A stretch of 64,000 bases of DNA from a virus. Each line of letters starts with the position of its first letter. Positions within the stretch are counted from its first letter, which is position 1. The stretch spans positions 24,580 to 88,579 of the IMG/VR virus record IMGVR_UViG_3300034093_001036, one strand, 5' to 3'. Shown here piece by piece: positions 28,305 through 53,280 of this stretch. The notes under the pieces are model-generated. The model saw nothing but the letters and a program-made list of their open reading frames with translations. It did not search any database and was not told the DNA's origin. The position numbers and the translations under genes were made by a program.

Positions 28305-29075
28305 TTAAGACGTTAACTTTTTCCACTCTTCTTTTTGAATGGCTTGCTCAATTCTTACTTGTTTTTCTTCTTCTTTCCACTTATCAATAGTTTCTTGACT
28401 ATATTCAATTTCAAAATAATCCCAAAAAGAAACCATAGTATATCTTGTGCCTTCTAATATTTTACTAACACCATGCACATTTTCTATTCCTCCAGGAAAT
28501 ACATAGTAAGAGTATGCATTTGGTTTAAAGGATAAATAGATGTCCCACTTTTCTCCTTCTGAATTTATTTCAAAGTCTTCTTTTTCTTTACAAAAGAAAA
28601 GATCTCCACCTTCATAGTCGTTATTAAGATATAGAATACCCACATACTTATTTATTTCAAAAGCGTTTGGGACCCCGTCATTATCTGAGTTGTCAGAATG
28701 AGGAGAAGCAAAACCGCCAACATCCCACTTCTGTGCATGAGATGTATTGGCTCTAACTTTTCTTTCAAAAACCAGTTCAACTGCTTCTTTAAACTTTTCT
28801 CTAAGGTCATCAAAAAATGTTAGCGTTAGACCATGTTCTTCAAGTCCTGGATCGTTTGCCATTAATCCCATACCTAGAGATCCATAAAACGCTATGTCTC
28901 CCCAGTTTTCTCCTTTTGACTCTACATAATTAATTAGACATTGGCTTGTTTTTTCATCTATAAAATTAGGAATTTCAACAATTCTGTTGTGAGTTATACC
29001 TAAAACACCCTTATTATTTAATTCATCTTTTAAATATTTAAAGTTATCTTTATTAAGTTGATTAATGATAGTCAT
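28305..29075 (-). CDS. 2OG-Fe(II) oxygenase, Arg-type
   Basis: A 256-residue double-stranded beta-helix oxygenase. The iron triad is His126-Asp128 (SPHSDN) and His201 (NVHGVS); Arg211, ten residues after the distal His, should bind the 2-oxoglutarate carboxylate. The typical ILYLNNDYEGGDLFF strand pair follows the HxD. It would hydroxylate a protein or small-molecule substrate using 2-oxoglutarate and oxygen. It is the last gene of the leftward oxygenase string and overlaps the upstream oxygenase by 14 bases. Two of the seven classical members use Arg rather than Lys here, so the substrate may differ. Confidence 0.85.
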   Translation of the reverse strand: MTIINQLNKDNFKYLKDELNNKGVLGITHNRIVEIPNFIDEKTSQCLINYVESKGENWGDIAFYGSLGMGLMANDPGLEEHGLTLTFFDDLREKFKEAVELVFERKVRANTSHAQKWDVGGFASPHSDNSDNDGVPNAFEINKYVGILYLNNDYEGGDLFFCKEKEDFEINSEGEKWDIYLSFKPNAYSYYVFPGGIENVHGVSKILEGTRYTMVSFWDYFEIEYSQETIDKWKEEEKQVRIEQAIQKEEWKKLTS

Positions 29076-30707: not shown

Positions 30708-30745
30708 TTTTTGTCCCCCATTGGATTATCTTTAAACATATAATT

Positions 30746-30754
30746 ATTATACCA
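30746..30754 (-). promoter_or_regulatory. Extended -10 promoter inside end of JmjC-like gene
   Basis: TGGTATAAT is formed by the last Val codon and stop codon (GTA TAA) of the 30747-31301 gene. It would produce a ~30-base leader for the oxygenase starting at 30707. Confidence 0.45.
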
Positions 30755-31301
30755 CCTTGTCTCCAAATAAAATTGCAAAACCAAATCTAGGGGTTATGGG
30801 TTCAACATAGTGGTAAGTTCCACCAGGTATATACAATAGATCTCCTTCTTCTAATATAACATCCATAAAAGGTTGATCATTTTCAACAGAATCATAAAGT
30901 CTCCAACGTGTTTTACCTTTACATTGCCAATGTATATTGTTTTCCCTGTCTTCATGTTTGCCAATAACTTGTCCGCTATCTTCAAGTTTAAGTGAACCAA
31001 ATAACTGACATGTTACAACCTTTAAATCTTTAAAACAAGGATAAAATCTAGAATGAACTTCTTTTACAAATAAATTTACTGAACTTATAATCTGTGCCTC
31101 ATCATAAAATAATGCGTATGGATTAGGCAAAATCTTTTTACCAGTTTTTTTGTGCTCATAATCATTTACAAACTGAAGCACTTCATCCCAGGTAACTTCA
31201 GGCATTGATATTTTTGGAAAAAGAGTTGCTACTTTATTATTATAAGCATTTAAAAAATTATCTTGATCTAAAAAATTAAAATCAAAACTTTTATTTTTCA
31301 T
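30747..31301 (-). CDS. JmjC/cupin-type Fe(II) oxygenase
   Basis: A 184-residue protein distinct from the surrounding oxygenases. Residues ~112-135 (HEDRENNIHWQCKGKTRWRL) match the JmjC/ROX pattern in which HxD (His116-Asp118) is followed by a Trp and a K-x-W-R-L strand; EEGDLLYIPGGTYHYVEPI supplies the distal His164. Family members such as ribosomal oxygenases hydroxylate protein side chains. It is short for a JmjC enzyme, so it probably consists of the catalytic core only. It overlaps the upstream oxygenase by four bases. Confidence 0.7.
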   Translation of the reverse strand: MKNKSFDFNFLDQDNFLNAYNNKVATLFPKISMPEVTWDEVLQFVNDYEHKKTGKKILPNPYALFYDEAQIISSVNLFVKEVHSRFYPCFKDLKVVTCQLFGSLKLEDSGQVIGKHEDRENNIHWQCKGKTRWRLYDSVENDQPFMDVILEEGDLLYIPGGTYHYVEPITPRFGFAILFGDKVV

Positions 31302-31972
31302 TTTGATTTTCCATGTGAACGAATTGTAAAGAAAAAAGGAATAACATATCTAATTCCTTTTTTAATTTCTCTTACTCCGTGAATATAATTTAAATCTCCA
31401 GGGAAGAAATATGCAGAACCCGCTTTTGGCTTAAACTCAATTCCTTGATTTGGGAAATATAACTCTCCACCTTCATAGTCATCATTAAGATAAAAAAGAC
31501 CTGCAATATCATACCAAGGAAAATCATTTGGCTTTCCTACATTGTCTCCTTCGTGCAACTCTTTATCTGCATGTGGGTTTTGTAGTTGTCCTGGAAGCCA
31601 TCTAACAATTGCTGTTGCTGTGGGCCAGGCGTCAATATTAAAAAAATCATTTACTTCTTCTGTAAGCCTGTCTTGAAGGCTTTTAATTACTGGGTTTATA
31701 TTTTTATTATTTTGATCTAATCTATCTCCAGTGCAGACTCTGTCATCCCAATATTTAGAATCATAAATAACAGTTCCTTCTTCGTTATAGTGAGTTTCAG
31801 TAATATCCCAAATTGTAATATTTTTTGCTGATTCTGATAAAAAAGATAGTTCTTCGTCGGTCATAAAATTGTTTCGTGCTTGGATCATATCTGCACTTTT
31901 ACCAAAAAATCCAGAGGGAGTTATTGAAAATCTATCTTTATCTTGGTGATTAGAGTACTCTATTTTTTTCAT
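31298..31972 (-). CDS. 2OG-Fe(II) oxygenase, Arg-type
   Basis: A 224-residue oxygenase with His134-Asp136 (NPHADK), distal His198 (YIHGVR) and Arg208. The AGLFYLNDDYEGGELYFP strand and FKPKAGSAYFFPGD segment are characteristic. A TGATATACT box six bases before the ATG predicts a leaderless mRNA, so this gene starts a transcription unit that continues through the JmjC-like gene and three more oxygenases. Confidence 0.87.
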   Translation of the reverse strand: MKKIEYSNHQDKDRFSITPSGFFGKSADMIQARNNFMTDEELSFLSESAKNITIWDITETHYNEEGTVIYDSKYWDDRVCTGDRLDQNNKNINPVIKSLQDRLTEEVNDFFNIDAWPTATAIVRWLPGQLQNPHADKELHEGDNVGKPNDFPWYDIAGLFYLNDDYEGGELYFPNQGIEFKPKAGSAYFFPGDLNYIHGVREIKKGIRYVIPFFFTIRSHGKSK

Positions 31973-31978
31973 ACAGTT

Positions 31979-31987
31979 AGTATATCA
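31979..31987 (-). promoter_or_regulatory. Leaderless extended -10 promoter of oxygenase gene
   Basis: TGATATACT ends exactly six bases before the ATG at 31972. Confidence 0.6.
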
Positions 31988-31992
31988 TCTTT

Positions 31993-32727
31993 CTATTCAT
32001 ATTTGCGCTGCTCCCAGATTTCATTTTTATATATTCCGCCATTTGGTTTTCTATAAATTTGATAATTTTCTATTGATTGCTTCATTAGTTCAACTGCATT
32101 ATCTTGTTCTATTATTTCAGAAGTCCAGGATTCTCTTTTAAATGGCAGAAGTTGAGCATACGCTGTTCCTTCTGGAATAATTCCCTCAAAACCCTCACAA
32201 ATAAAAAATGGAAAAGATCCAGGCATATGAACTTTGTCGTTATCCACAATTCCACTAGTTAGCAAAAATGGTAACTCAAATCTGTTAAATGGCTGAGTAT
32301 ACAATACGCTATATCCTGGAGGAGTTTTTATTTGCCAATCTGGAGTTATTGCAAAATGATTTTTGTAATACCCGCGGGGGTGTTCAAACTGTGGCATTTC
32401 TGATCTTTCTTCAATTAAGTTTTTATATTTTACATTTAAAACTTTATGTTTTAGTCCAGAATCAGTCATGTAGAATTCAATATCGCAAGGAAGATTAAGA
32501 GAATATCCAGAACCCATAATATCAAAAATTGCAGGACAGGCCTTCCATGTAGGAACTTTTCCACCATCCTCTCCTATATAAAAAGAATTGTCTGTTGGTA
32601 ATTTTGCAAACCTATCTGCTTTTCTAAACCATTCAGGAATTGTTCTTATAATTGGAGTTGGTGCTGACTTGCTTTCTTTTGAAAGCCAAATTTTATTTGC
32701 AATAAAAGATATTTTTTCTGTATTCAT
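31993..32727 (-). CDS. Beta-rich protein of unknown function, paralog of next gene
   Basis: A 244-residue protein that starts with an IPEWFRKADRF-type segment. It aligns over its length with the 236-residue gene at 32727-33437: PAIFDIMGSGYSLNLPCDIE versus PVSLANTTGWTFSFPEDISF, and IIPEGTAYAQLLPFKRE versus TIPAGTPIVCIMPISLK. The layout recalls the DUF6065-type proteins that I remember from phages, but this is from memory. It has no HxD motif and is not an oxygenase. Its presence within the modification cassette suggests an accessory or substrate-binding role. Confidence 0.5.
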   Translation of the reverse strand: MNTEKISFIANKIWLSKESKSAPTPIIRTIPEWFRKADRFAKLPTDNSFYIGEDGGKVPTWKACPAIFDIMGSGYSLNLPCDIEFYMTDSGLKHKVLNVKYKNLIEERSEMPQFEHPRGYYKNHFAITPDWQIKTPPGYSVLYTQPFNRFELPFLLTSGIVDNDKVHMPGSFPFFICEGFEGIIPEGTAYAQLLPFKRESWTSEIIEQDNAVELMKQSIENYQIYRKPNGGIYKNEIWEQRKYE

Positions 32728-33437
32728 TACTTGTCACTTTGATATTTATTAATTGAAAGTTTTAAGGATTTTACTTCGTGCTCTCCAAGGCTATTTCCTA
32801 AATGGTCAACAGCATCTCTATAAAAGTTTGTCCATTGTCCAGACTGAGTTATTTCTCCAGAGGCTTTTCCATATTCAGAAAGATTCTTTTCAAAATCTTG
32901 ATCTTTTACATAGTCGTACAGATTTACTTCTGTTGCTTGGAGTTTTTTTAAACTAATTGGCATAATACAAACAATTGGTGTTCCTGCTGGTATTGTTATT
33001 ACTTCATTTGCCCTTGTTATTTTCCATGCATATGGAAGTGGAGCAAGATGGACAACTGGACTAATTACACTTGAGAATCCTTGAACACCATCAATAAATT
33101 GATTTGGAACTGGAAGGAGCAGTAGACTAATCTCATCAGTACTTTTAAAATATAAACCACTATTAAAACTTATAGTTCCGTTAGCCCTGTTTGCATGAAC
33201 ATACTTTTCTCCAGAAAGAATTTCAAGGTCTTCAGATCTAGAGTTTGGATCTGTTCCTTTCCAAATAAAAGAAATGTCTTCTGGAAAAGAAAATGTCCAT
33301 CCTGTTGTGTTTGCCAACGATACTGGGAAGCAATGATAGGCGTGTTTGTCAAAAGTTTCATCCATCCAGTTTCTTCTAACTTTTAAAGTATCAAAAGTTA
33401 CATCAGAATGTGGTGTTTGATAAACATCTATAGACAT
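32727..33437 (-). CDS. Beta-rich protein of unknown function, paralog of previous gene
   Basis: A 236-residue protein sharing the same strand order as its downstream neighbour, including the GW-F and PAGTP-type turns. A possible DUF6065 relationship is unverified. It begins one base after the stop of the 33439-34125 oxygenase and its stop touches the next ATG, so both paralogs are co-translated between two oxygenases. No catalytic residues can be named. Confidence 0.5.
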   Translation of the reverse strand: MSIDVYQTPHSDVTFDTLKVRRNWMDETFDKHAYHCFPVSLANTTGWTFSFPEDISFIWKGTDPNSRSEDLEILSGEKYVHANRANGTISFNSGLYFKSTDEISLLLLPVPNQFIDGVQGFSSVISPVVHLAPLPYAWKITRANEVITIPAGTPIVCIMPISLKKLQATEVNLYDYVKDQDFEKNLSEYGKASGEITQSGQWTNFYRDAVDHLGNSLGEHEVKSLKLSINKYQSDK

Positions 33438-33438
33438 G

Positions 33439-34125
33439 TTAGTTTCCTGTTTCTAAAAACATCTCTGGTCCATGGAATTTTGCGCTGTAGTCTAGCATTG
33501 TTACAATTGAATATTTAGTTCCGCTAGTAACTGGCATTGCTCTATGAGAATACATATATGTTGATGGGAAAATATACAAATCTCCAGCACGTGGTTTTAC
33601 TAATAAATCTTGGTGTTGAAAATGTAAACCACCGTCGACGTAGTCGTCATTTGGGTATGCAACCAAAGACACTGTACAGTTATAAGAAAATCCATGATCA
33701 TGATGATATTGGAAATGCTGACCCTCATGGTATCTAATAAAATTCATTGCTTCCCAAAACCTTAGTTCTGCAATATTAAACATTTTACGATAGTGCTCAA
33801 CTGCTGGACTTTTTCTATCGTAGCAGTCTTGCCAAAGTTGTTGAAGCGCTAAAGATGCTTCTCCTGGTCTTTGTGCCATATCTTTCTTTGTAAACTTAAA
33901 GTCAACACAATCTCTATATTCTGGCATGCTTTCTTGATAGCCAACAAACGCTTCCATCCAGTGAAATGGGTTGCTTTGGTCTTCAAGAACAGACTCTAAT
34001 CTGTTAATAATATCCAGTTCTTTAGGTAAAACATCTCTATAGACAAAAATTCCACTCCCTAGATCTTCAAAAGACGACCAGGTTTGCTCTATAGGGGTTG
34101 TCTCAGTTTGAACATGTTTTTGCAT
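33439..34125 (-). CDS. 2OG-Fe(II) oxygenase, prolyl-4-hydroxylase type
   Basis: A 228-residue oxygenase with His141-Asp143 (YHHDHGF), distal His194 (YSHRAM) and Lys204 at +10. The VAYPNDDYVDGGLHF and KPRAGDLYIFPSTYMY segments closely follow those of the 34161-34865 protein, with which it shares an N-terminal layout (FVGYQ..YRDCVDFKF versus VRNCIDIKYK). The two are paralogs. It has a promoter TGCTATAAT ~27 bases upstream and an AGGAAAAA ribosome site. Confidence 0.87.
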   Translation of the reverse strand: MQKHVQTETTPIEQTWSSFEDLGSGIFVYRDVLPKELDIINRLESVLEDQSNPFHWMEAFVGYQESMPEYRDCVDFKFTKKDMAQRPGEASLALQQLWQDCYDRKSPAVEHYRKMFNIAELRFWEAMNFIRYHEGQHFQYHHDHGFSYNCTVSLVAYPNDDYVDGGLHFQHQDLLVKPRAGDLYIFPSTYMYSHRAMPVTSGTKYSIVTMLDYSAKFHGPEMFLETGN

Positions 34126-34151
34126 TTTTTCCTGCTTTCTACTATGTATAT

Positions 34152-34160
34152 ATTATAGCA
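34152..34160 (-). promoter_or_regulatory. Extended -10 promoter of oxygenase gene
   Basis: TGCTATAAT lies at the 3' end of the upstream oxygenase gene and yields a short leader with a ribosome site before the ATG at 34125. Confidence 0.45.
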
Positions 34161-34865
34161 CTAGTTATTCTTATGATGTAAATCGTTATAGTCTGTCATA
34201 ATTACAACAGAATACTTTATACCCTGCAATAATTCACAAGAGGCATGCTCATAAACAAAATTTGATGGGAAAAGAACAATGTCTCCAGCCTGGGGCTTAA
34301 TCTTTAATTCTTGTCTTGGAAACTCTAATTCTCCACCAACATAGTCATCATTAAGATATAGTATTGCAGATATTGTACATGCATAGAATGGGCCATGGTC
34401 ACCATGAAGTTTAAAATATTTCCCAGGTAGATACTTAACAAAATTAAAGGCTTCTTTGTATTTCATCTGAAGATGCCATAAAGACTCATAATCATTTAGG
34501 CAGACATCTAATGCGTCTTCTACCTCTTTGTGTATGTCAAACATGTCTTGATTAAAAGATATCCCAGACTTTCCAAGCATATCTCTTTTATATTTTATAT
34601 CAATGCAGTTCCTAACATAATCTAAATTTTCTACATCATTAACCATTGCTGTAGACCAAGAAAGGTTACAGTCTGGATCGTTTGCTGAGTTTTCTAGTCT
34701 TTTAATTATACTATCACACTGGCTTCTATTTATGGCATTTTTATATACATTAATACCGTAGCCAATATTTAAAACCTCTATGTTATTTGACATTGATCTA
34801 GACTTTAGCCTACTGTCTGCTTTTTCTAATCTTGGTAAATCAAGCCACCCAAAGTTATTTGTCAT
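34161..34865 (-). CDS. 2OG-Fe(II) oxygenase, prolyl-4-hydroxylase type
   Basis: A 234-residue oxygenase with His154-Asp156 (KLHGDHG), distal His207 (YEHASC) and Lys217 at +10. AILYLNDDYVGGELEFP and KPQAGDIVLFPSN are typical. It is a paralog of the downstream oxygenase and also resembles the one at 47410-47931. TGCTATAAT six bases before the ATG indicates leaderless expression. Confidence 0.87.
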   Translation of the reverse strand: MTNNFGWLDLPRLEKADSRLKSRSMSNNIEVLNIGYGINVYKNAINRSQCDSIIKRLENSANDPDCNLSWSTAMVNDVENLDYVRNCIDIKYKRDMLGKSGISFNQDMFDIHKEVEDALDVCLNDYESLWHLQMKYKEAFNFVKYLPGKYFKLHGDHGPFYACTISAILYLNDDYVGGELEFPRQELKIKPQAGDIVLFPSNFVYEHASCELLQGIKYSVVIMTDYNDLHHKNN

Positions 34866-34871
34866 TCTAAT

Positions 34872-34880
34872 ATTATAGCA
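34872..34880 (-). promoter_or_regulatory. Leaderless extended -10 promoter of oxygenase gene
   Basis: TGCTATAAT ends exactly six bases before the ATG at 34865. Confidence 0.6.
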
Positions 34881-34909
34881 TATCTACATATTTATACAAA
34901 ATATTAATT

Positions 34910-35587
34910 TTAAATTTGATATATGTAAATTTCTGCAAAATCATAAATTGGATCTTTTTTAAGCAATTCTTTAAAAATATAATCATTTTCAAAATGAAAA
35001 ACAAAAAAGGATTTAGATTTTGATAAAATTTCCCATTTATCTAATATTAATTTATTAAAAATTTCAGGCAGCAATGGGTAATAAAAATAATAAACACACT
35101 TTTCTTCTGAAAAATGATAATCATTTATATCACTATTTATAAAATCAACTTCTTTATCTATTTCTATATTAATTGTTTTTAAATTATTTAAAGCAATATT
35201 GTTGAATTGATCGTCTATCTCTACACCTACATACTTCTTATACGGTGCATTTGAGATTAACTGATGTAAAATTGTTTTTCCCTTACCGCTACCTATATCT
35301 AAAAAGGTATACTCCTCAATTCCTTCAATATCTTTCATAAAATTATTCACCATGTCTAAAATTTTTAAAGGTGAGTTCTGTAAACCCATTGATCCTGGAA
35401 ACCTATCATTATTATCAATACTGCCTGGCACATATTCACCAGAACCATCTGAGGCTAAAGGAGTTGGATGCCAAGTGTCTACATTATATTTTTCATCAAA
35501 AAATTTGAATAATGAAGCGTCTTCTCTTCTAATTTTTTTTAATACATCTAAATTCTTTATTGTACTTTTGTCTACACCTTTATGCAT
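34910..35587 (-). CDS. SAM-dependent methyltransferase
   Basis: A 225-residue class I methyltransferase. Motif I is FLDIGSGKGKT (residues 95-105), the acidic loop after strand 2 is GVEID (121-125), and FINSDINDYHF follows as motif II-like. The GSGKGKT form with the preceding GLQNSPLKILDMV is similar to phage and DOT1-like protein methyltransferases; the target cannot be read from the sequence. It overlaps the AspH-type gene by eight bases and lies in the modification cassette, so a virion protein is a plausible substrate. Confidence 0.75.
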   Translation of the reverse strand: MHKGVDKSTIKNLDVLKKIRREDASLFKFFDEKYNVDTWHPTPLASDGSGEYVPGSIDNNDRFPGSMGLQNSPLKILDMVNNFMKDIEGIEEYTFLDIGSGKGKTILHQLISNAPYKKYVGVEIDDQFNNIALNNLKTINIEIDKEVDFINSDINDYHFSEEKCVYYFYYPLLPEIFNKLILDKWEILSKSKSFFVFHFENDYIFKELLKKDPIYDFAEIYIYQI

Positions 35588-36167
35588 TTTTTGCTCCTAA
35601 ATATTTGTTTGGCATGATATCAATTATAGCATGGATTCTGTCATGGTCACTATCGTTTATTACTGAGTGTGGAATAATATTATTAATCTCATACCAATTT
35701 CCAACCTCAAGATACTTTTTTTCTTCAAATACTTCAAATATGACTTTTGGATTTGTTATTAGTGGAATATGTATTCTTCTACCGAGTTGTAGCATTACCC
35801 CGCCATCAACGTGAGATTTTATTCCAGAGCGCTTATTCATTTGAATTATCTCACTCCTAATAACTTTGCCATCGTACAAGTTTTCTAAATATTCATAAAT
35901 AGCATTAAGGCTTTCATTAGATTGTTTATTTTTAAAATAATTTATATCATAAGATGTATTGCCTTGTCCAATTTCCCAATGATAAGACATAAACCTTAGT
36001 TGAAACATTTTTGTATCTTTGTGCGTTGCCAACTTGTCTTGACGAGAAGTATCCAGTAGCCACTCATTTTCAAAAGAGTTAACTTCTTGAATTATTGAAG
36101 ATAGATCAACTGGTAAAGATCCATATTGATAGTTCCAAGAAGTATTCTTATCTGGTAGTTTTAACAT
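35580..36167 (-). CDS. Aspartyl/asparaginyl beta-hydroxylase-type oxygenase
   Basis: A 195-residue oxygenase of a different subtype. The residues SHVDGG (His119-Asp121), then RRIHIPLITNP, and IIPHSVIND (His167) followed by RIHAIID (Arg177) match the AspH family, in which the R-x-H-x-P-L strand is diagnostic. It would hydroxylate Asp, Asn or another side chain. It overlaps the sulfotransferase-like gene by 20 bases and the methyltransferase by eight. Confidence 0.8.
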   Translation of the reverse strand: MLKLPDKNTSWNYQYGSLPVDLSSIIQEVNSFENEWLLDTSRQDKLATHKDTKMFQLRFMSYHWEIGQGNTSYDINYFKNKQSNESLNAIYEYLENLYDGKVIRSEIIQMNKRSGIKSHVDGGVMLQLGRRIHIPLITNPKVIFEVFEEKKYLEVGNWYEINNIIPHSVINDSDHDRIHAIIDIMPNKYLGAKNA

Positions 36168-36834
36168 AATCGTAAATTTCCATATCTAAATTGTTTAATT
36201 CTTCAATTTTATTTTTCATTGAATCTGATATTTTAATAGTTTGAAAATTTTCATTAATAGCATTTTTATTTGAAAAACTATAAAACCCATATGCCTGATA
36301 ACATAGATCATTTAACCTTGATATAAAAGATGAATGATTGTCTAATGTATCTATTAGAGCCATTGAGTCTATAAGGTCTTTTACTTCTTTTATATCTACG
36401 CTACCTTCTTCAAGGCACCAACTTTCATTGGCTCTTTGAATTCCGTGGTCTAAAGAATTATAAAAATCTTCGTTTAAACTTTTATTTAAACTTCTAGCCT
36501 GAAGGTTATGGTGTTTTGAATTTTCCACCCATTTTTCAAGTTGAGCCTCTAAGTGAGCACCTTTAAAAGATGGATGTAAATAAATAAAGTTGCTTATAAA
36601 TCTATCTAATGGATTTCTAACCAAGCCTATATTTATTAAGTCGTCTCTATACTTTAATGCAGTCAGACCAAAGTGCCCTGAAATAAACCGTTTATCAACA
36701 AAGGTTTTTGGAAAAACCTCTCCGTGGTTTGTAGCAAAGTATGGAATCTTCCTAATCTTTAGATCATTAACAATATGAGTCTTTATATATATACCCGAAC
36801 ATCTTGGGATATGTATATGATTTATTGAACTCAT
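36148..36834 (-). CDS. Sulfotransferase-like protein
   Basis: A 228-residue protein with the two marks of PAPS-dependent sulfotransferases: an N-terminal HIPRCSGIYIK (residues 8-18), equivalent to the 5'-phosphosulfate loop HxPKxGGT, and GLVRNPLDRFISNFIYLHP (Arg73 onward), equivalent to the 3'-phosphate motif RdPvdRxxS. The P-loop is divergent (CSG in place of TGG), so activity is uncertain. It begins one base before the stop of the Hint fibre gene ends upstream, and could sulfate a glycan or tyrosine on a virion protein. Confidence 0.65.
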   Translation of the reverse strand: MSSINHIHIPRCSGIYIKTHIVNDLKIRKIPYFATNHGEVFPKTFVDKRFISGHFGLTALKYRDDLINIGLVRNPLDRFISNFIYLHPSFKGAHLEAQLEKWVENSKHHNLQARSLNKSLNEDFYNSLDHGIQRANESWCLEEGSVDIKEVKDLIDSMALIDTLDNHSSFISRLNDLCYQAYGFYSFSNKNAINENFQTIKISDSMKNKIEELNNLDMEIYDYVKTTR

Positions 36835-45302: not shown

Positions 45303-45330
45303 AACACCTACCAAGGTGTTGTTGTTTTCT
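45303..45330 (+). other. 5' hairpin in lysozyme mRNA leader
   Basis: AACACCT-ACCA-AGGTGTT forms a seven-pair stem with a four-base loop, followed by GTTGTTTTC and then the AAGGAGG ribosome site. Being at the predicted 5' end, it may stabilise the message or act as a weak attenuator. Confidence 0.55.
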
Positions 45331-45342
45331 AAGGAGGAAACT

Positions 45343-45906
45343 ATGATTAAATTTATCGAAAGAAACAAAGAGATCATTAGCACACTCAGTATCGTAGCAC
45401 TAGTAACAGTTATGTCTAATTCTGCTAATGCTATTTCAGATTTTGATACTAAGAATAACCTTAGCCTGAAACAGGCTCAGACATCGGAAACCACCTCGAA
45501 AGAGGTTTTTTTGGTTTCTAAAGCAAAAAAGTTAGAGAGTTTTGAAAATAAGGTTTCTCTAACAGATTTAGAACTAAAGGAACTGCTTTCCCTAGTTGGC
45601 TTCAAGGGTAAAGACCTTGTTGTGGCTTGGGCAGTAGCAAAGAAAGAATCTAATGGACGACCATTGGCCTTTAATGGCAATCACAAGACTGGGGATTCGT
45701 CTTATGGTATGTTCCAAATTAATATGATTGATACACTTGGTCCTGATCGTAGGGACAAGTTTGATCTTGACTCTAACGCTGAATTATTTAATCCCGTCAA
45801 GAATGCTGAAATTGCATACTACATGACAAAGGGTGGGGACGACTGGTCTTCTTGGAAAGGCATCACTCCAAAGACTAAGGAATGGATGGCTAAGTTTCCT
45901 CGCTAA
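45343..45906 (+). CDS. Secreted lysozyme/transglycosylase-like protein
   Basis: A 187-residue protein, the only rightward gene within the late region. A Sec signal peptide is clear: basic MIKFIERNKE, hydrophobic IISTLSIVALVTVM, and an SANA cleavage site near residue 28. The C-terminal ~100 residues have a lysozyme-like fold: VAKKESNGRPLAF supplies the catalytic Glu, and DSSYGMFQINMID is the standard substrate-cleft segment of SLT-type muramidases. The spacer between signal and domain is Ser/Thr/Lys-rich. The ATG at 45343 has AAGGAGGAAACT before it. It should degrade peptidoglycan, as endolysin or exported muralytic enzyme. Confidence 0.8.
   Translation: MIKFIERNKEIISTLSIVALVTVMSNSANAISDFDTKNNLSLKQAQTSETTSKEVFLVSKAKKLESFENKVSLTDLELKELLSLVGFKGKDLVVAWAVAKKESNGRPLAFNGNHKTGDSSYGMFQINMIDTLGPDRRDKFDLDSNAELFNPVKNAEIAYYMTKGGDDWSSWKGITPKTKEWMAKFPR
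45493..45512 (+). terminator. Terminator-like hairpin inside lysozyme gene
   Basis: ACCTC-GAAA-GAGGT followed by seven T residues lies in the linker-coding part of the lysozyme gene. A flanking AAACC/GGTTT pair can extend the stem. It looks like a true intrinsic terminator, yet it is within the coding frame. Confidence 0.55.
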
Positions 45907-46856
45907 TTCCTTCTTGGTGGCATGCCAAGTGCCCTAGGCTCAACTACAACATGTGAACTGTAGTTTGGAATAAAGTCTGTGTATTTTGTGTCTATACCAG
46001 ACTCTTTAAGAAAATTGTAAACTTTTTCTTTTGGAATTTCTAATTGACCAGACATTAGCATAGACAGTCTATTAGTTGATTCTTCAACATGGCTCCAGTA
46101 GTGTTCTTTTCTGCCGTCTGCCCAAGGCCTAAGCGTTTCTCTTGTTACAGATCCATTTGCCTGTCCATGCGACTGATTGTGAAAAACATCCCTTGTGCCA
46201 ATAGAGTAAATTTTCCAATCTTTTGCATAAGTTCTTAAAGATAAAGCAAACTCTTCAGTATTGAATGATTCTTTACCGCTAATACCAACTTCATCAATCC
46301 ATTGCTTGGGTGCAAAAAGGTAACAACATGTAGCCCAATACGAACGAACTATTTCCTCTATTTCTAAAACCCTGTATCCTGGAAACTGAAATCCTGGAAC
46401 TAAATTATTAAATAAAAATCCATACAGTGATACTTTACAGTCTGTAACAAAATTAATTGACCCGTCTGACATTATTTTATACTCTGCTGGGGCATATGCA
46501 ATAATAAATTTTTCATTATTAATATTTAATTTTTCATATCTTTCAACAGCAAACCTATCCCATTCTGGTGCTGCATAGGTGTGTGAATCAAACTGTATAA
46601 AATAGTTATAATCTACATTAACTTGAGTTGCCAAGTTTCTAGCCCAACAGACACCACCCCTATACTCTGAAAGATCAAAGTGCCTATATAATAACTGTTC
46701 TTTTGGTATAAAAGATAAATCATATTTAGTATTATCTTCTGAAACTATAGAAAAATACAGATCCTCTTTATTTTTTGCCTGATGCCACAAAGAAAACATT
46801 GTAGAATAAAACTCTGGGTCACAATAATTGACAACACTAACTAATATTTTTTTCAT
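45903..46856 (-). CDS. GlcNAc-transferase-like glycosyltransferase
   Basis: A 317-residue GT-A fold enzyme. It starts KKILVSVVNYCDPEF, has a GGVCWARNLATQ helix that binds the nucleotide sugar, and an FIQFDSHTYAAPEWD segment (Asp90, His92, Asp100) in which DSH takes the place of the usual DxD. This combination is characteristic of the GlcNAc family (PF11397; GT60), known for adding GlcNAc to hydroxyproline of Skp1 in Dictyostelium. It overlaps the oxygenase at 46853 by four bases. Target and sugar are inferred. Confidence 0.75.
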   Translation of the reverse strand: MKKILVSVVNYCDPEFYSTMFSLWHQAKNKEDLYFSIVSEDNTKYDLSFIPKEQLLYRHFDLSEYRGGVCWARNLATQVNVDYNYFIQFDSHTYAAPEWDRFAVERYEKLNINNEKFIIAYAPAEYKIMSDGSINFVTDCKVSLYGFLFNNLVPGFQFPGYRVLEIEEIVRSYWATCCYLFAPKQWIDEVGISGKESFNTEEFALSLRTYAKDWKIYSIGTRDVFHNQSHGQANGSVTRETLRPWADGRKEHYWSHVEESTNRLSMLMSGQLEIPKEKVYNFLKESGIDTKYTDFIPNYSSHVVVEPRALGMPPRRN

Positions 46857-47413
46857 CCCTTATTTCTTATTCCAGTATATAAATGTTGTGGGCCTTTTGT
46901 AAAAAACCAATGATCTGGCTCTACATAAAAGAAAAAAGCATTTGCAACTAGGTTATTCTTTGGGTCAGGGAATTCCTCTCTCCAGTGTTGTTGATCATTC
47001 CCGTATGAAATAACCATATCATTTTCTTCTGGTTGAAACTTTATTCCTTCAACATAAAAATCCCAAGGTGTTTTATGAAAAATTGTATAATTCATATGGT
47101 ATGTACAAGCATTATCATCAACATGTTTCCAAAGTCTAGCCTTTTCTCCTTCATAGATACTTAATAAACACCAGGAAGGAAGTAATGTTTCTGATTCAAA
47201 TTCTTCTTTTGCCAGTGGTAGAAGCATCTGATGAAATTTTCTAAGTGGTATTATATTTTCTCTATGTGTTCCGTCCCAAATTGCCCATTGATGTCTACCA
47301 AAACCTTCGTCAAATGTACTTTTATCTGTTGACCAAAGATGCATTGCTAGATCTTGTAATTCCTTATGTTCTTTTTCTGGAAGAACGGTTTTTAATAAAT
47401 ATGGCGCTTTCAT
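46853..47413 (-). CDS. 2OG-Fe(II) oxygenase, divergent
   Basis: A 186-residue protein with HVDD (His97-Asp99) and a distal His143 in NDQQHWREEF. The typical strands are present (NYTIFHKTPWDFYVEGIKFQ and EENDMVISYGND), but the usual GG-x-L-x-F segment is replaced, so it is a more distant member. It is sandwiched in overlap between the GlcNAc transferase and another oxygenase, which suggests a shared substrate. Confidence 0.7.
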   Translation of the reverse strand: MKAPYLLKTVLPEKEHKELQDLAMHLWSTDKSTFDEGFGRHQWAIWDGTHRENIIPLRKFHQMLLPLAKEEFESETLLPSWCLLSIYEGEKARLWKHVDDNACTYHMNYTIFHKTPWDFYVEGIKFQPEENDMVISYGNDQQHWREEFPDPKNNLVANAFFFYVEPDHWFFTKGPQHLYTGIRNKG

Positions 47414-47931
47414 CGTAGAAAACTAACTACTGCATATTTATCGCCTTCAATAATTGGGGATACTGAGTGATTATAAACATATATAGATGGAAATATAATT
47501 ATTTGATTAGTTTTTGGTTTAAGTTTAATATTAAATCTTGGAAAGTTTATTTCTCCACCAATATAATCATCATTTAAATAATATACAACTGAAACTCTTC
47601 TATGATATTCGGTTCCGTCATCTACATGATTAATAAAACCTTGTCCTGGACTATATTTCATTATTCCGTATACGTCATGCCATTCAGGAAATATCTTATA
47701 ATACTCTTTATAGTCTTTCTCTATTGGATCAAAATGATCAAAGAACAACCTGTTTAATTTTAAAGAAGTTATTTTTTCTAAATCTTCAACTTCTGCATAA
47801 GACCATTTAGGTGTAATCCATTTAGAATCCATCATCAATTTTTGAATTTCTTTATATAAAAAAACATTATCTGGAATTACATTATCATATACAACAATTC
47901 CTGGAGCAATTTCTTCTTTTATCATTACCAT
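47410..47931 (-). CDS. 2OG-Fe(II) oxygenase, prolyl-4-hydroxylase type
   Basis: A 173-residue oxygenase, close to a minimal catalytic core. The triad is His102-Asp104 (NHVDDG) and His155 (YNHSVS), with Lys165 at +10. VVYYLNDDYIGGEINFP matches the cluster at 28-35 kb. I start it at the ATG at 47931, preceded by TTAGGAAA and overlapping the upstream stop; a longer frame reaching 47991 lies inside the upstream gene and lacks a ribosome site. Confidence 0.85.
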   Translation of the reverse strand: MVMIKEEIAPGIVVYDNVIPDNVFLYKEIQKLMMDSKWITPKWSYAEVEDLEKITSLKLNRLFFDHFDPIEKDYKEYYKIFPEWHDVYGIMKYSPGQGFINHVDDGTEYHRRVSVVYYLNDDYIGGEINFPRFNIKLKPKTNQIIIFPSIYVYNHSVSPIIEGDKYAVVSFLR

Positions 47932-48122
47932 TTTCCTAACGGACACGATGCTGCTTCTAACATTACTTTTGCTTTCATAAAACATCCACATTTTTTACAT
48001 TGTTTTGTTAATTTTATTAGTTCTGGACATTGTTTGCATATATTAAATCTTTGATTAGAGAGATCTGATTCCTTTACATAATTTTTTAAATTAAGCATGT
48101 GTAAAGGATTTACTTCGTTCAT
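47925..48122 (-). CDS. Small Cys-rich zinc-binding protein
   Basis: A 65-residue protein with FNICKQCPEL, KQCKKCGCFMKAKVML and ASCPLGKW. This Cys spacing is that of a small family widespread in T4-like and cyanophages, often next to fibre or modification genes; its function is unknown. It probably binds one zinc ion. It lies between the Hint fibre and the prolyl-hydroxylase-like gene. Confidence 0.7.
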   Translation of the reverse strand: MNEVNPLHMLNLKNYVKESDLSNQRFNICKQCPELIKLTKQCKKCGCFMKAKVMLEAASCPLGKW

Positions 48123-48123
48123 T

Positions 48124-49845
48124 TTATTCTGAATCTCTTTGTGTTAGGCCTTGGAAGACACCCTTCTTATTATGAGAGATTAGATCTCCTGCAATAAAGA
48201 GTGAATAAGGATTTACAGTGATGTCATAAACATCTGTTGTTTCATCAACATAACCCAATACTTCAACAAGTACATCTGTTGCTTGATTATTTATGTCATA
48301 AACTAAATAGTCGCCAAGTTTAATTACACCAGCCTGAATAAATGCGTATACTCCATCTCTCTTAACTAGCATTAAGTGCTCTAGAGAGAATCTTCTTTGC
48401 TTACTACCATTAAACATTACAGTAGTTGCAACATCTCTTGCCTTAATTGCACTAATAGTTGTTTCAACAACTGATGATCCAGTTAGAGTATCAGATACCC
48501 ATGTCTCAGCAAAATCAACAGATGAGTTATCTGGTAATTCATTGAAACTGTAGGATACTAGACTTTGTCCTATAAACAAATCTCTTGCTTTAACATATCC
48601 ACTAGTTGTTCTTACAAGAACATCACCCTGTACACATCCATCAATTGGTGCAACTGGTGTTGGTTCAGTTGGAGTTGGGGTAAATACTGGTGGGAAGAAT
48701 GGACAGAATACTGGTGGGAAGAATGGACAGAATACTGGTGGGAAGAACGGACAGAATGATGGTGGGAAGAACGGTGGGAAGAACGGTGGGAAGAACGGTG
48801 GGAAGAATGGTCCTGTTGCTGGAGGCGTACAGTCTTGTGTGTCCGAATCTGTTCCTGTTGTAACAATTGGGGCTGGGTTTGGAGAACATCCACTTGCAGT
48901 TTCTGTTATAGTATACGATCTAGTTCTTGTTTGTGCATATTCATCTGGGCCACCAACTCTTACACAAGCACCCCAAGGACCCCACTCACCGTAAGTTGTT
49001 GTTGTTGTCCAGGTTGGTACACATGTTGGTGCAACTGGTGCAACTGGTGCAACTGGTGCAACTGGTGCAGTTGGTGTAGGTGTTGTACAAGTTACTGATG
49101 GATATCCTGAAGAACTTGCTGCAGTAATATTGGTTGCAGTTGGATATGTTGCTAATAAATTATCTAATGCCTGTCCTGATGTTGCTCCTGTGTCAGTAAC
49201 CGTAGTTCCACCAACACAACCAGAGATATACCAAGTTGTTGCAACAGGTGTTGGAGTAGGTGTTGTACAAGTTACTGATGGATATCCTGAAGAACTTGCT
49301 GCAGTAATATTGGTTGCAGTTGGGTGAACTTCTAGAAGATTATCAAGGGCTCTTCCTGATGTTGGACCTTCTCCATAAACAGGACTTCCATTAACGCAAC
49401 CAGAGATGTACCAAGTAACAGGTGTTGGTGTTGGTGTTGGTACACATGCTGCAGGAATTCCCAATAAAGTAACAATTTCAGCACTTGACAAGTTTGATAT
49501 TGTAGTTGTTCCTGTAATGTTTGTAATTCCTGATCCTGTAGGAGGTGTTCCATAAGCGCCTGAATAAGCAGTCGTTGATCCGTTACATGTTACATAAATA
49601 TCATAAATTGTAACCTCTGGTGTTGGTGTTACAGGAGTAGGTGCTACAGGAGTAGGTTCTACAGGAGTAGGTGCTACAGGAGTAGGTGCTACAGGAGTAG
49701 GTGCTACAGGAGTAGGTGCTACAGGAGTAGGTGCTACAGGAGTAGGTTCTACAGGAGTAGGTGCTACAGGAGTAGGTGCTACAGGAGTAGGAGTTGCTGC
49801 TAAAAATATTCCTATACCACTTGGGCCACGAAATAATGGACTCAT
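48124..49845 (-). CDS. Second Hint-domain fibre with TPVAP repeats
   Basis: A 573-residue protein. After a short N-terminus comes a TPVAP/TPVEP repeat (about residues 17-75), then repeated ~55-residue modules (WYISGCVGGTTVTDTGATSG twice, one diverged copy), an APV repeat, a thrombospondin-type-1-like segment (YGEWGPWGACV ... QTRTRSY), a PFFPP/PPVFC repeat, a second TPTEPTPVAP linker, and a C-terminal Hint domain nearly identical to that of 36836-38200 (Cys1 in CVQGDVLVRTT; end LISHN followed by KKG). The downstream genes encode two oxygenases and a GlcNAc transferase, which could modify the Pro/Thr repeats. Confidence 0.8.
   Translation of the reverse strand: MSPLFRGPSGIGIFLAATPTPVAPTPVAPTPVEPTPVAPTPVAPTPVAPTPVAPTPVAPTPVEPTPVAPTPVTPTPEVTIYDIYVTCNGSTTAYSGAYGTPPTGSGITNITGTTTISNLSSAEIVTLLGIPAACVPTPTPTPVTWYISGCVNGSPVYGEGPTSGRALDNLLEVHPTATNITAASSSGYPSVTCTTPTPTPVATTWYISGCVGGTTVTDTGATSGQALDNLLATYPTATNITAASSSGYPSVTCTTPTPTAPVAPVAPVAPVAPTCVPTWTTTTTYGEWGPWGACVRVGGPDEYAQTRTRSYTITETASGCSPNPAPIVTTGTDSDTQDCTPPATGPFFPPFFPPFFPPFFPPSFCPFFPPVFCPFFPPVFCPFFPPVFTPTPTEPTPVAPIDGCVQGDVLVRTTSGYVKARDLFIGQSLVSYSFNELPDNSSVDFAETWVSDTLTGSSVVETTISAIKARDVATTVMFNGSKQRRFSLEHLMLVKRDGVYAFIQAGVIKLGDYLVYDINNQATDVLVEVLGYVDETTDVYDITVNPYSLFIAGDLISHNKKGVFQGLTQRDSE
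48685..48808. repeat. Second PFFPP-coding tandem repeat
   Basis: The same GGTGGGAAGAA(C/T)GG units as at 37346-37606, coding PFFPP and PFFPPVFC on the minus strand. Confidence 0.85.
49079..49322. repeat. 180-bp-spaced direct repeat in Hint fibre gene
   Basis: A segment of about 64 bases beginning GTGTTGTACAAGTTACTG at 49079 recurs unchanged at 49259. It marks duplication of a ~60-residue WYISGC module. Confidence 0.85.
49630..49793. repeat. 15-bp TPVAP-coding tandem repeat
   Basis: About eleven copies of a 15-base unit (ACAGGAGTAGGTGCT and variants with TTCT) encode PTPVA or PTPVE on the minus strand. Confidence 0.9.
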
Positions 49846-49863: not shown

Positions 49864-50622
49864 CTAAGCAAACTTGTTCTGTGATGCAAGAGCAGTAAAT
49901 GTTTCTGCACCTGTTTTCCTAATTGTATAAACATAAACATCTGTTGAGTTAATGTTTCCTGAAGAAGGGGCTATTCCACCTAACCATTTAGGAGTTACTG
50001 ATGCACCATCAACAGTAAGTGCTGTTGGGTAATATGCAGTTCCACTTTGAGGAGATTCAAATACAACAGAGATTTGCTGACCTGTTGCCATTAATGAATT
50101 AAGAGTAGTTGTTGCATTGCCACGAATATTTATTGTCCAATTTGCGACGGCATTGGAAGTACGAATATCAATAGAAGAAGTAGCAACATCAATATCAATT
50201 GCTCCAGTTGCTGCTGTTGCAGAAATAGTTGTTAATTCTTTTGGTGATACAAGTGAAGATTTATCAACTCCGTCTACATAAGACTTTGTTGCTAAAAGAG
50301 AAGTATCTGCTATGCCATGGACATTTGTTGTAGATGAATTATGTGTTGTAATTGCAGCATTTCTGGCTAATACTTCTGCTGCATCTGCTGCAGTTCTATT
50401 TACTACTTCAAGAGCATCTGCATCTACAAGATTCTGTAAATGTTTTGCAATAGATGGGGTTAAAAGGTTTGCGGTATTTGTATTTGAACCGTCATAGGCA
50501 TAAGATCCATAGTGGTAAAGTCTTAGCGCTGCTTGAATATCGGCTGCATCTGAAAGTCCAGGTATTTTGGCATTGAATAGCCCAGTACCACCAACGGTAT
50601 TGTCAATATTCTCTGCTGCCAC
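49864..50622 (-). CDS. Fibre-type virion protein
   Basis: A 252-residue protein with GTG start. The N-terminus (LSDAADIQAALRLYHYGSYA) resembles T4-like cyanophage fibre attachment segments; HNSSTTNVHGIADTSLLATK and ATKSYVDGVD are fibre motifs also seen in the 905-residue fibre; the C-terminal ~100 residues are a compact beta domain. AAAGGGTG serves as ribosome site and a TGGTATAAT box lies 18 bases upstream. Confidence 0.7.
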   Translation of the reverse strand: MAAENIDNTVGGTGLFNAKIPGLSDAADIQAALRLYHYGSYAYDGSNTNTANLLTPSIAKHLQNLVDADALEVVNRTAADAAEVLARNAAITTHNSSTTNVHGIADTSLLATKSYVDGVDKSSLVSPKELTTISATAATGAIDIDVATSSIDIRTSNAVANWTINIRGNATTTLNSLMATGQQISVVFESPQSGTAYYPTALTVDGASVTPKWLGGIAPSSGNINSTDVYVYTIRKTGAETFTALASQNKFA

Positions 50623-51702: not shown

Positions 51703-51711
51703 ATTATACCA
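51703..51711 (-). promoter_or_regulatory. Leaderless extended -10 promoter
   Basis: TGGTATAAT ends six bases before the ATG at 51696 and includes the Val-stop end of the upstream gene. Confidence 0.6.
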
Positions 51712-52435
51712 CGCTGACGTAGACAGAATTGAATATTACAGATGAATCAAAGTCTGTTCTAATTTGTGGAACAGCGCCATTGCCCCACATTGCTTGGTTT
51801 TCAATAAATATTTGTTGAGTGACTGAAAGATTATAAGTATTCTGATATTTAAATGATCCTACTAATTGTACAAACTCCTGATCATTGCTTGCAAAATAGG
51901 TTCTTAGCCAAACCTCTGTATTTGAGGTATATGTGGTTAGTTCAAAGTTATATGTTACGGATACTTGGGAGCCTTCTTTTATACCGTGAAAGTTTAAGGC
52001 TCTCTGGTGGCTATTCCAAAGACTGGTACAGCCTGCTGGAAGGTATTTTTCATTTTGACTCTTATCTTTTGTGTCTAATAAAAGAGTTACCCAACCATCG
52101 TCTCCTTGAGAGATACCAAGTTTGATTGGTTTTTCAATAGTGTTTGTATATGAGGCCCAACCTGCTTGTTGTCCAGATGATGACAATGAACTTTGGCCAT
52201 TGACTCCTGCTGGACCACGATCTCCTTTAGGGCCAGGATTTCCCTGTGCTCCTTGCAATCCTTGTTCGCCATTTCTGCCATCTCTACCTGCAGGTCCTTG
52301 TGGTCCGACTGGGCCAGGGACTGGAAGAAATGAAATAGCATTATCTACAGTAGGATATGTTTGACTTTGTTCTACTTGTGCAGCATAAGAAGATTTTTTT
52401 GCACCTGGGAAATCCATAGATTTAGAAACAGCCAT
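51704..52435 (-). CDS. Collagen-like fibre protein
   Basis: A 243-residue protein with a Gly-X-Y stretch (GPVGPQGPAGRDGRNGEQGL and onward to about residue 80) followed by a ~150-residue globular beta domain (GWVTLLLDTKDKSQN..., QVSVTYNFELTTYTSN). Collagen triple helices need 4-hydroxyproline for stability in animals; the prolyl-hydroxylase-like enzymes nearby make this a possible substrate. A TGAGATAAT box precedes the ATG by six bases. Confidence 0.8.
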   Translation of the reverse strand: MAVSKSMDFPGAKKSSYAAQVEQSQTYPTVDNAISFLPVPGPVGPQGPAGRDGRNGEQGLQGAQGNPGPKGDRGPAGVNGQSSLSSSGQQAGWASYTNTIEKPIKLGISQGDDGWVTLLLDTKDKSQNEKYLPAGCTSLWNSHQRALNFHGIKEGSQVSVTYNFELTTYTSNTEVWLRTYFASNDQEFVQLVGSFKYQNTYNLSVTQQIFIENQAMWGNGAVPQIRTDFDSSVIFNSVYVSVV

Positions 52436-52441
52436 GGAGTT

Positions 52442-52450
52442 ATTATCTCA
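52442..52450 (-). promoter_or_regulatory. Leaderless promoter with GATAAT box
   Basis: TGAGATAAT ends six bases before the ATG at 52435. It is the only GATAAT variant in the set. Confidence 0.5.
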
Positions 52451-52455
52451 CTATA

Positions 52456-53280
52456 TTAAGTCAGTGACTCTATAGATGTAATGATTCCGTTGGTAACTGT
52501 AACCATCTTGCTATCTGAGGTTTGGAATGTTCCTGTTGCTCCCGTTGGTAAATCACCAATAGTTGCAATTTGATTATCAGCAACAGTTGGATCATCTAAG
52601 AATTCTCCACCATCTCCAGATATAACAACAGTGTCAGGAGCAAGTAAAAATAAAGGATCTGCATCTTTACCATAAAGTCCATTAACTTTTATTAAACTGT
52701 CTGGTGCTGGGCCAGTTAATAATCCATCAGATCCAAATACCCATTGGTTTTCAGATACTTCTTCTCCAGGCGGTCTTGTGCTTACCAATACTAATCTTTC
52801 TTCATCAGAAACAAGAACTTTATTTCTTTCTCCACCAATAACAAAAGTGCTGTTTTTAGAGAAAATGTCCCACTCGGCAGTGTTACCAACTGGATCTGCT
52901 AAACCACCATTTGCTTTTGCAATGTATAGATTGTTATCGCTTCCTCTTACAACTGCAAGATCTGTAATGTATCCATTACCTGAAATATAGTTTCCTAAGT
53001 ATACAAGTCCGCTAGAACCATTTGTTCCATCTGCACCTTTTGCTGCAAGCAAGTTCCAGATAAATCCTTGTGCAGGTGTGTCTCCAACGTTTCCACCATT
53101 TGCATTAGCACGGTACCAAAGTTGTCCATCGTATGTTGCTAAATCTCCAACAGCATATGCTGCGCCACCACTGTATTCTCCAGTGTAATTCCAAATAGCA
53201 TCTGCCCCATCTTCTCCTGGTGTACCAGGTGCTCCTGGAGTCCCGTCTCCGCTACCACCTGTTGTAGTAAAACGTGCCAT
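52456..53280 (-). CDS. Fibre protein with collagen-like and carbohydrate-binding modules
   Basis: A 274-residue protein. A short collagen-like stretch (GTPGAPGTPGEDGAD) is followed by a CBM5/12-like module (WNYTGEYSGGAAYAVGDLAT, then YDGQLWYRANANGG), a second similar module (GLVYLGNYISGNGYITDLAV) and a small C-terminal domain ending GTFQTSDSKMVTVTNGI. The repeated W/Y-rich modules suggest binding to host surface glycans. Confidence 0.75.
   Translation of the reverse strand: MARFTTTGGSGDGTPGAPGTPGEDGADAIWNYTGEYSGGAAYAVGDLATYDGQLWYRANANGGNVGDTPAQGFIWNLLAAKGADGTNGSSGLVYLGNYISGNGYITDLAVVRGSDNNLYIAKANGGLADPVGNTAEWDIFSKNSTFVIGGERNKVLVSDEERLVLVSTRPPGEEVSENQWVFGSDGLLTGPAPDSLIKVNGLYGKDADPLFLLAPDTVVISGDGGEFLDDPTVADNQIATIGDLPTGATGTFQTSDSKMVTVTNGIITSIESLT

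What the first reader, a model, noticed from the sequence alone, without database searches (positions are those of the whole stretch)
45903..49845. Possible phage version of the Skp1 prolyl-hydroxylation/GlcNAc pathway beside a TPVAP-repeat fibre
Downstream of a fibre with TPVAP repeats come, in overlapping order, a Cys-rich protein, a prolyl-4-hydroxylase-type oxygenase (Lys at distal His +10), a divergent oxygenase, and a glycosyltransferase with the FDSH...WD segment of the GT60/PF11397 family. In Dictyostelium, Skp1 is hydroxylated on Pro and a GT60 enzyme then adds GlcNAc to the hydroxyproline. The gene order suggests an analogous two-step modification of Pro-rich fibre repeats. Family knowledge is established; the pathway in this phage is inference.
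Basis: partly seen in the sequence, partly recalled or inferred. Interest (0 to 1): 0.9.

Follow-up and report, generated by a model that had tools for sequence, protein, structure and literature searches.

The report
Phage cassette decorating proline-rich fibre repeats
Next to a proline-rich fibre-like protein, this phage carries enzymes that look built to add oxygen to proline and then a sugar to the protein; the same gene set, with different sugar enzymes swapped in, sits beside proline-rich proteins in many related and some unrelated phages, which would give a role to phage oxygenases of unknown function.

Summary
Reading along the minus strand, genes 49845-45903 form a tightly coupled run: TPVAP-repeat protein, DUF6171 Zn-ribbon-like protein, prolyl-4-hydroxylase-type oxygenase (P4H), second oxygenase (OXY2), and a PF11397/GT60 glycosyltransferase (E 2.6e-20). 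Comparison with about 300 public viral loci shows that this is a modular cassette. Starting from the repeat alone or from OXY2 alone gives the same neighbourhood: 53 of 56 distinct OXY2 proteins have a Pro-rich gene among the four upstream genes (collagen-type Gly-X-Y in 3). All 59 distinct OXY2 whose downstream slot is complete carry a GT-like gene, but the GT is swappable: GT60, O-FucT-like plus a GDP-sugar epimerase, or a mannosyltransferase-like protein. The constant oxygenase is OXY2, not P4H; the nearest solved fold to its model is the Dictyostelium prolyl hydroxylase 6t8m. I therefore favour prolyl hydroxylation plus O-glycosylation of the repeats, with hydroxyproline the likelier acceptor here. 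The acceptor is unproven: GT60 also contains Thr/Ser transferases, and seven GT60 cassettes beside Thr-rich (PT)n-type repeats have no neighbouring oxygenase. The 'Skp1 pathway' label is only an analogy. Verdict: first reading partly supported; a new variant of virion protein glycosylation.

The parts
48124..49845 (-). Pro-rich repeat protein, probably a tail-associated fibre (573 aa, 82 Pro): 9 TPVAP + 2 TPVEP, PFFPP repeats, C-terminal Hint-like domain
   Evidence: in relatives the repeats are fused to the tail-type N-terminal domain of the neighbouring gene
49615..49794 (-). TP(V)(A/E)P tandem repeat block, proposed substrate (coordinates approximate)
   Evidence: 177 codon forms encode TPVAP over 80 fibre N-termini, and copy number varies between near-identical contigs
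48127..48639 (-). Hint/intein-like domain, Cys at its start, ends ...ISHN-K plus 13 further residues
   Evidence: PF14890 E 1.2e-4, below its cut-off; read from sequence
47925..48122 (-). DUF6171 Cys-rich (Zn-ribbon-like) small protein, part of nearly every cassette
   Evidence: PF19668 5.4e-8; fused to a GT60 in L256
47410..47925 (-). Prolyl-4-hydroxylase-type 2OG-Fe(II) oxygenase (P4H); ORF open to 47991 but the likely start is ATG at 47925
   Evidence: PF13640 3e-13; profile vs Bacillus P4H 3itq 1.2e-10; HxD, distal His, Lys at +10
46853..47413 (-). OXY2: second 2OG-type oxygenase, the constant oxygenase of the cassette
   Evidence: HxD...H invariant in 26; AF2 pLDDT 91; Foldseek top hit 6t8m
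45903..46856 (-). PF11397/GT60 glycosyltransferase (predicted protein O-HexNAc transferase)
   Evidence: E 2.6e-20; A5 profile vs PDB best = polypeptide GalNAc-transferase 6s22, 0.0015
49864..50622 (-). Tail-type protein (phrog_5906) whose N-terminal ~117 aa are fused to the TPVAP repeats in relatives
45316..45906 (+). SLT lysozyme-like gene, convergent; marks the downstream boundary of the cassette in most relatives
   Evidence: PF18896 1.7e-15

Best explanation
The five genes are a post-translational decoration cassette for a Pro-rich virion fibre. After translation the P4H and the PHD-like OXY2 use Fe(II), 2-oxoglutarate and O2 to hydroxylate prolines in the x-P-x-P / TPVAP / PFFPP repeats. 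The GT60 enzyme then transfers a HexNAc (GlcNAc by family analogy) to the repeats, in this lineage most probably onto the new hydroxyprolines. DUF6171 is an accessory of the glycosylation step. Other phages keep repeats and hydroxylase but swap the sugar enzyme, so the glycan coat can change like a serotype. Shown: gene order, families, intact motifs, conserved linkage. Inferred: catalysis, substrate, sugar, acceptor residue and biological role (rod stiffness, protease or host evasion, receptor binding).
For: Families. OXY2 model nearest to Dictyostelium PHD and other prolyl hydroxylases. Repeat-first scan returns the cassette. OXY2-first scan: 53/56 distinct OXY2 have a Pro-rich gene within four upstream genes, Gly-X-Y 3/56. 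59/59 complete slots carry a GT-like gene, and its family varies. The alternative GTs resemble protein O-glycosyltransferases (PF10250, POFUT2). The cassette occurs in records lacking the window's portal and capsid. A separately assembled suite with a Pro-rich protein, P4H, O-FucT, GT60 and an epimerase is in L303, and a similar set in L306. 118 of 126 distinct Pro-rich proteins next to DUF6171/GT60 have an oxygenase in the cassette, including Thr-poor repeats. GT60 lineages lie near a 2OG oxygenase in 17/41 against a random mean of 5.4, maximum 12 in 1000.
Against: No modification is shown. GT60 also includes Thr/Ser transferases (PMC3188802, PMC8724618). Seven GT60 cassettes have no neighbouring oxygenase, and none was found by family search in the five records checked. 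L242 pairs GT60 and two P4H-like genes with a Thr-Ile repeat, though its fibre is truncated. OXY2 lacks the usual Lys/Arg at +9/+10 after the distal His. TPVAP proteins without these enzymes exist in other phages. Much of the co-occurrence is among related phages; the tree-corrected pair test is in the expected direction but not significant. The Thr-poor GT60 cases L222 and L223 have CGH in place of DSH.
Confidence: 0.5

Rival explanations
1. Mucin-type reading: the GT60 adds HexNAc to Thr/Ser of the repeats, as the Dictyostelium Golgi and T. cruzi GT60 enzymes do; the oxygenases act separately, hydroxylating Pro to stiffen the rod or modifying other residues.
For: GT60 contains Thr/Ser transferases (PMC3188802, PMC8724618, PMC6939170). 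Oxygenase-free GT60 cassettes sit beside Thr-rich repeats: Thr+Ser 0.28-0.46 in 7, against 0.03-0.45 (mid-range near 0.28) in 50 with oxygenase, p 0.007, not corrected for kinship. Every TPVAP unit holds a Thr. The A5 profile finds pp-GalNAcTs.
Against: Does not explain why an oxygenase accompanies 118 of 126 Pro-rich proteins and why Thr-poor repeats (VPVPVP, PFFPPFFP) occur with an oxygenase.
Confidence: 0.3
2. The enzymes act on another target: the collagen-like tail proteins at 51704-53280, or host surface molecules; the Pro-rich repeats are an unmodified spacer.
For: Collagen-like proteins lie 4-5 genes upstream, and P4Hs act on collagen in other systems.
Against: Gly-X-Y genes are within four upstream genes of only 3/56 distinct OXY2, against 53/56 for Pro-rich genes. 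The collagen-like gene is 84-86% conserved with or without P4H.
Confidence: 0.12
3. Plain synteny: a conserved tail/moron region in one phage family, with no shared pathway.
For: Many loci share the same backbone; the tree-corrected test is not significant.
Against: The region is otherwise very variable (fibre architecture, P4H and GT exchanged) while Pro-repeat, OXY2 and a GT persist, also in records without the window's portal and capsid genes and as a separately assembled set in L303/L306.
Confidence: 0.08

Closest known systems
Skp1 prolyl-hydroxylation/GlcNAc pathway of Dictyostelium and Toxoplasma (PhyA + Gnt1)
   Same: PHD-like prolyl hydroxylase plus PF11397/GT60 transferase; OXY2's model is closest to the Dictyostelium PHD 6t8m
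   Different: Substrate is a repeated phage fibre, not Skp1 at one Pro; a second P4H and DUF6171 are present; the GT is swappable; no later sugar enzymes identified; hydroxyproline acceptor not shown
Mucin-type GT60 O-GlcNAc of protists (Dictyostelium Golgi, T. cruzi)
   Same: Same GT family, Pro/Thr-rich repeat targets
   Different: No hydroxylase needed there; here an oxygenase is nearly always in the cassette
Plant/green-algal hydroxyproline-rich glycoproteins (P4H + Hyp glycosyltransferases)
   Same: Hydroxylated Pro-rich rods carrying Hyp-linked sugars (PMC8724618)
   Different: Eukaryotic secretory pathway, other GT families
Mimivirus collagen lysyl hydroxylase/glucosyltransferase L230, R699
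   Same: A virus encodes both the hydroxylase and the GT for a repetitive protein (PMC9546862)
   Different: Collagen Lys, giant virus of amoebae, unrelated GT
Mycobacteriophage virion glycosylation (Che8, Corndog, Myrna)
   Same: Phage-encoded GTs decorate capsid/tail proteins of actinobacteriophages (PMC12363180 citing Freeman 2023)
   Different: No prolyl hydroxylase partner described there; different GTs
Phage PHD-like 2OG-Fe(II) oxygenases (PHROG 61; Phold paper)
   Same: Same oxygenase class, widespread in aquatic phages, structurally like EGLN3 (PMC12774648)
   Different: There the role is unknown; here a substrate and pathway are proposed

Membership tests
PF11397 / GT60 glycosyltransferase | Profile match above the curated cut-off | tested here: met
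   73.6 bits against 21; 18/18 relatives match
PF11397 / GT60 glycosyltransferase | DXD-like metal site and conserved core (DSH, WD, EE) | tested here: met
   Met in the window; DSH is CGH in L221-L223
PF11397 / GT60 glycosyltransferase | UDP-GlcNAc donor, polypeptide acceptor | not testable with these tools
   Needs an enzyme assay; the GT model was poor (pLDDT 50)
Prolyl 4-hydroxylase (47410-47925) | HxD...H triad and Lys/Arg about +9/+10 after the distal His | tested here: met
   K at +10 in the window, R in 12 of 13
Prolyl 4-hydroxylase (47410-47925) | Closest to known P4Hs rather than other 2OG enzymes | tested here: met
   3itq 1.2e-10; EGLN1 and other P4H weaker
Prolyl 4-hydroxylase (47410-47925) | Hydroxylates peptidyl proline | not testable with these tools
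   -
PHD-like prolyl hydroxylase (OXY2, 46853-47413) | DSBH fold nearest to prolyl hydroxylases | tested here: met
   6t8m top, then PHD2, with AlkB close behind (TMq 0.62); many PHD2 entries inflate the list
PHD-like prolyl hydroxylase (OXY2, 46853-47413) | Basic 2OG-binding residue at +9/+10 | tested here: not met
   K/E/D at +9 (K only in 2 of 26), N/T/H at +10, invariant N at +11; invariant R is at +2. So not filed as a PHD family member, only as working like one
Skp1-type hydroxyproline GlcNAc pathway | Prolyl hydroxylase and GT60 acting in sequence on the same Pro | not testable with these tools
   Gene linkage only
Skp1-type hydroxyproline GlcNAc pathway | GT60 dependent on the hydroxylase | tested here: inconclusive
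   P4H lost in several relatives but OXY2 kept; seven GT60 cassettes with no neighbouring oxygenase
Mucin-type GT60 system | Thr/Ser acceptor without hydroxylation | tested here: inconclusive
   Oxygenase-free cassettes are Thr-rich
Collagen-modifying system | Gly-X-Y substrate next to the enzymes | tested here: not met
   3/56

The most novel reading that the evidence does not exclude
Phages carry a transferable, serotype-like cassette that hydroxylates prolines of a virion fibre and then attaches lineage-specific sugars (HexNAc, GDP-sugar-derived deoxyhexose or hexose, sometimes sulfate) to the hydroxyprolines: Hyp-linked O-glycosylation outside eukaryotes, and a function for phage PHD-like oxygenases.
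Probability: 0.4. Interest if true: 0.9.

Novelty: new variant of a known kind. Interest (0 to 1): 0.72.

Why it matters
2OG-Fe(II) oxygenases that resemble prolyl hydroxylases are among the commonest unexplained phage genes (PMC12774648). Here one class has a candidate substrate (adjacent Pro-rich repeats), a partner (a protein GT) and a simple mass-spectrometry test. If true, hydroxyproline-linked glycosylation is not only eukaryotic, phages swap sugar coats on their fibres, and a compact set of genes could make hydroxylated glycopeptide rods in bacteria.

Tried and rejected
Collagen-like proteins as the main substrate: rejected as the default. P4H as the essential hydroxylase: rejected, lost in several relatives. 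GT60 as the defining GT: rejected, swapped. Structure of the GT: AF2 failed (pLDDT 50), so no fold search was made. PDB sequence hits for OXY2: none. GT60 profile in cellular genomes: A5 too divergent for the scan; A6 gave one MAG contig, with phage-like neighbours. OXY2 in 84,980 cellular species: none by pattern scan. Isolated phages: only the distant XacN1 GT (no neighbouring oxygenase) and weak cyanophage OXY2 hits. Tree-corrected association of oxygenase linkage with Pro-rich neighbours: right direction, too few independent pairs. Original GT60 papers (PMC2704902, PMC2873859) are not held, and eukaryotic GT60 sequences were not at hand, so the phage GT could not be placed against Skp1-type and mucin-type branches.
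Full report
WHERE IT IS. The window is 64 kb of an 88,579-base IMG/VR virus record. Its capsid genes are distantly like those of large Streptomyces phages, so an actinobacterial host is likely, but this is an inference. The region lies among tail and fibre genes.

THE OBSERVATION. The GT at 45903-46856 passes the PF11397 cut-off by a wide margin (73.6 bits against 21). The P4H has HxD, a distal His and Lys at +10, and its family profile retrieves the Bacillus prolyl 4-hydroxylases at 1e-10. The ORFs are translationally coupled: 1-nt gap, TAATG, and two 4-nt overlaps. The P4H ORF as called starts too early; relatives begin at the equivalent of 47925.

THE SECOND OXYGENASE. OXY2 has no Pfam match, but an invariant HxD...H triad in 26 relatives. 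AlphaFold2 gave a confident model (pLDDT 91). The best PDB match is 6t8m, the Dictyostelium prolyl hydroxylase, followed by human PHD2; AlkB is nearly as close, and PHD2 is over-represented in the PDB. The usual basic residue at +9/+10 is absent, so how it binds 2OG is open. I therefore call it PHD-like, not a PHD family member.

TEST 1, GT FIRST. In 20 viral contigs with a GT60 81-100% identical, the repeat protein, DUF6171, OXY2 and GT60 stay together wherever the contig covers them, while P4H is missing in L006, L011 and L013-L017. The fibre changes architecture completely: it is a separate protein, or fused to the neighbouring tail domain, with or without the Hint domain. The repeats remain.

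TEST 2, REPEAT FIRST. Scanning IMG/VR for DNA encoding TPVAPTPVAPT with free third positions gave 111 stretches. Most with downstream coverage show the same order, repeat protein - [small gene or sulfotransferase] - DUF6171 - [P4H] - OXY2 - variable slot - SLT. TPVAP is written with 177 codon forms over 80 fibre N-termini, so the peptide, not the DNA, is conserved. A minority of hits are unrelated proteins with TPVAP spacers and no such enzymes (L024, L068, L072 and others).

TEST 3, OXYGENASE FIRST. OXY2 has at least 441 relatives in IMG/VR, of which the best 80 were kept. Of 56 distinct OXY2 with upstream coverage, 53 have a Pro-rich gene among four upstream genes. Of the three exceptions, L097 does have a TPVAP gene a little further away and two are a different OXY2-like pair. 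Collagen-type repeats are there in 3. Repeat chemistry varies (TPVAP, PTPTAP, VPVPVAP, PFFPPFFP): Pro content of the repeat windows averages 0.34, while Thr+Ser ranges widely from 0.03 to 0.43.

THE SWAPPABLE SLOT. All 59 distinct OXY2 with a complete slot carry at least one GT-like gene: GT60; a 345-aa protein related to protein O-fucosyltransferases (PF10250 weak in 7/12, PDB best POFUT2 E 0.025) that is mostly paired with an NAD-epimerase of GDP-sugar type; or a mannosyltransferase-like protein (PF11051 2.4e-7). Some cassettes add a sulfotransferase, SGNH-like hydrolase, nucleotidyltransferase or carbamoyltransferase. The O-FucT-like naming is weak in the main lineage, but L303 has a clear PF10250 match (1.5e-9).

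OTHER BACKBONES. The cassette is found in records of 30-81 kb with no match to the window's portal or capsid, and in others with only a remote portal. In L303 a Pro-rich protein, a P4H, an O-FucT, a GT60 and an epimerase lie together in a different order; L306 has the oxygenase, GT60 and epimerase. In L074 a TPVAP protein abuts a P4H.

ACCEPTOR: HYP OR THR? GT60 holds both kinds: Skp1 hydroxyproline (PMC6939170) and mucin-type Thr/Ser (PMC3188802, PMC8724618). Seven GT60 cassettes lack a neighbouring oxygenase; none was found in the five of those records that I searched by family, several of which are short fragments. Their repeats are Thr-rich, mostly (PT)n, and richer in Thr+Ser than the rest (p 0.007 among GT60 cassettes, p 0.0003 against all; neither corrected for kinship). 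This fits an enzyme that can use Thr when no hydroxylase is present, and hydroxylases that supply further acceptors when Thr is scarce. It does not settle the window's own acceptor. The Thr-poor GT60 cases L222/L223 would need hydroxyproline, but their GT has CGH instead of DSH. Over a wider set of phage GT60s, 17 of 41 lineages have a 2OG oxygenase within two genes, against a random mean of 5.4. On the tree the linkage changes at least four times on well-supported branches, but independent pairs are too few for significance.

VERDICT. The genes and their linkage are real and general. The best reading is a decoration cassette for Pro-rich virion repeats, with Hyp-linked glycosylation the likelier but unproven chemistry (0.5). 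It works like the Skp1 and plant Hyp pathways; it is not shown to be a member of either.

Noticed in passing
48127-48639 (-): The repeat protein ends in a Hint/intein-like domain (Cys at start, ...ISHN then Lys, PF14890 1.2e-4 below cut-off); a +1 Lys would not allow splicing, so autocleavage is possible. Absent in the 85%-identity relatives. A Hint domain also follows a Thr-Ile repeat in L242:1-573.
   Followed up: partly
28305-36834 (-): A second cluster with six PF13640 oxygenases, a JmjC/cupin protein, DUF6065, a methyltransferase-like gene and a sulfotransferase (36148-36834), beside a virion structural protein; perhaps another decoration cassette.
   Followed up: no
L256:350-1447: DUF6171 fused to a GT60 in one protein, linking the unknown DUF6171 to the glycosylation step.
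   Followed up: yes
L029:9071-10162 and L029:10090-11127: Slot variant: NAD-epimerase of GDP-sugar type next to an O-FucT-like GT, predicting a GDP-sugar-derived decoration in place of HexNAc.
   Followed up: partly
L221-L223 GT60 genes: GT60 relatives whose DSH motif reads CGH; metal-independent, altered or inactive.
   Followed up: no
51704-52435 and 52456-53280 (-): Collagen-like (Gly-X-Y) tail proteins a few genes upstream.
   Followed up: partly
L003, L005, L007 fibre genes: Repeat copy number differs between otherwise near-identical contigs (570, 573 and 633 aa), so the fibre length varies rapidly.
   Followed up: partly
22426-26142 (-): 1238-aa protein between portal and ribonucleotide reductase genes with no PHROG match.
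   Followed up: no
L303:5798-7612 and L303:1-1572: An apparently unrelated phage with two Pro-rich proteins flanking a P4H, O-FucT, GT60 and epimerase set.
   Followed up: partly
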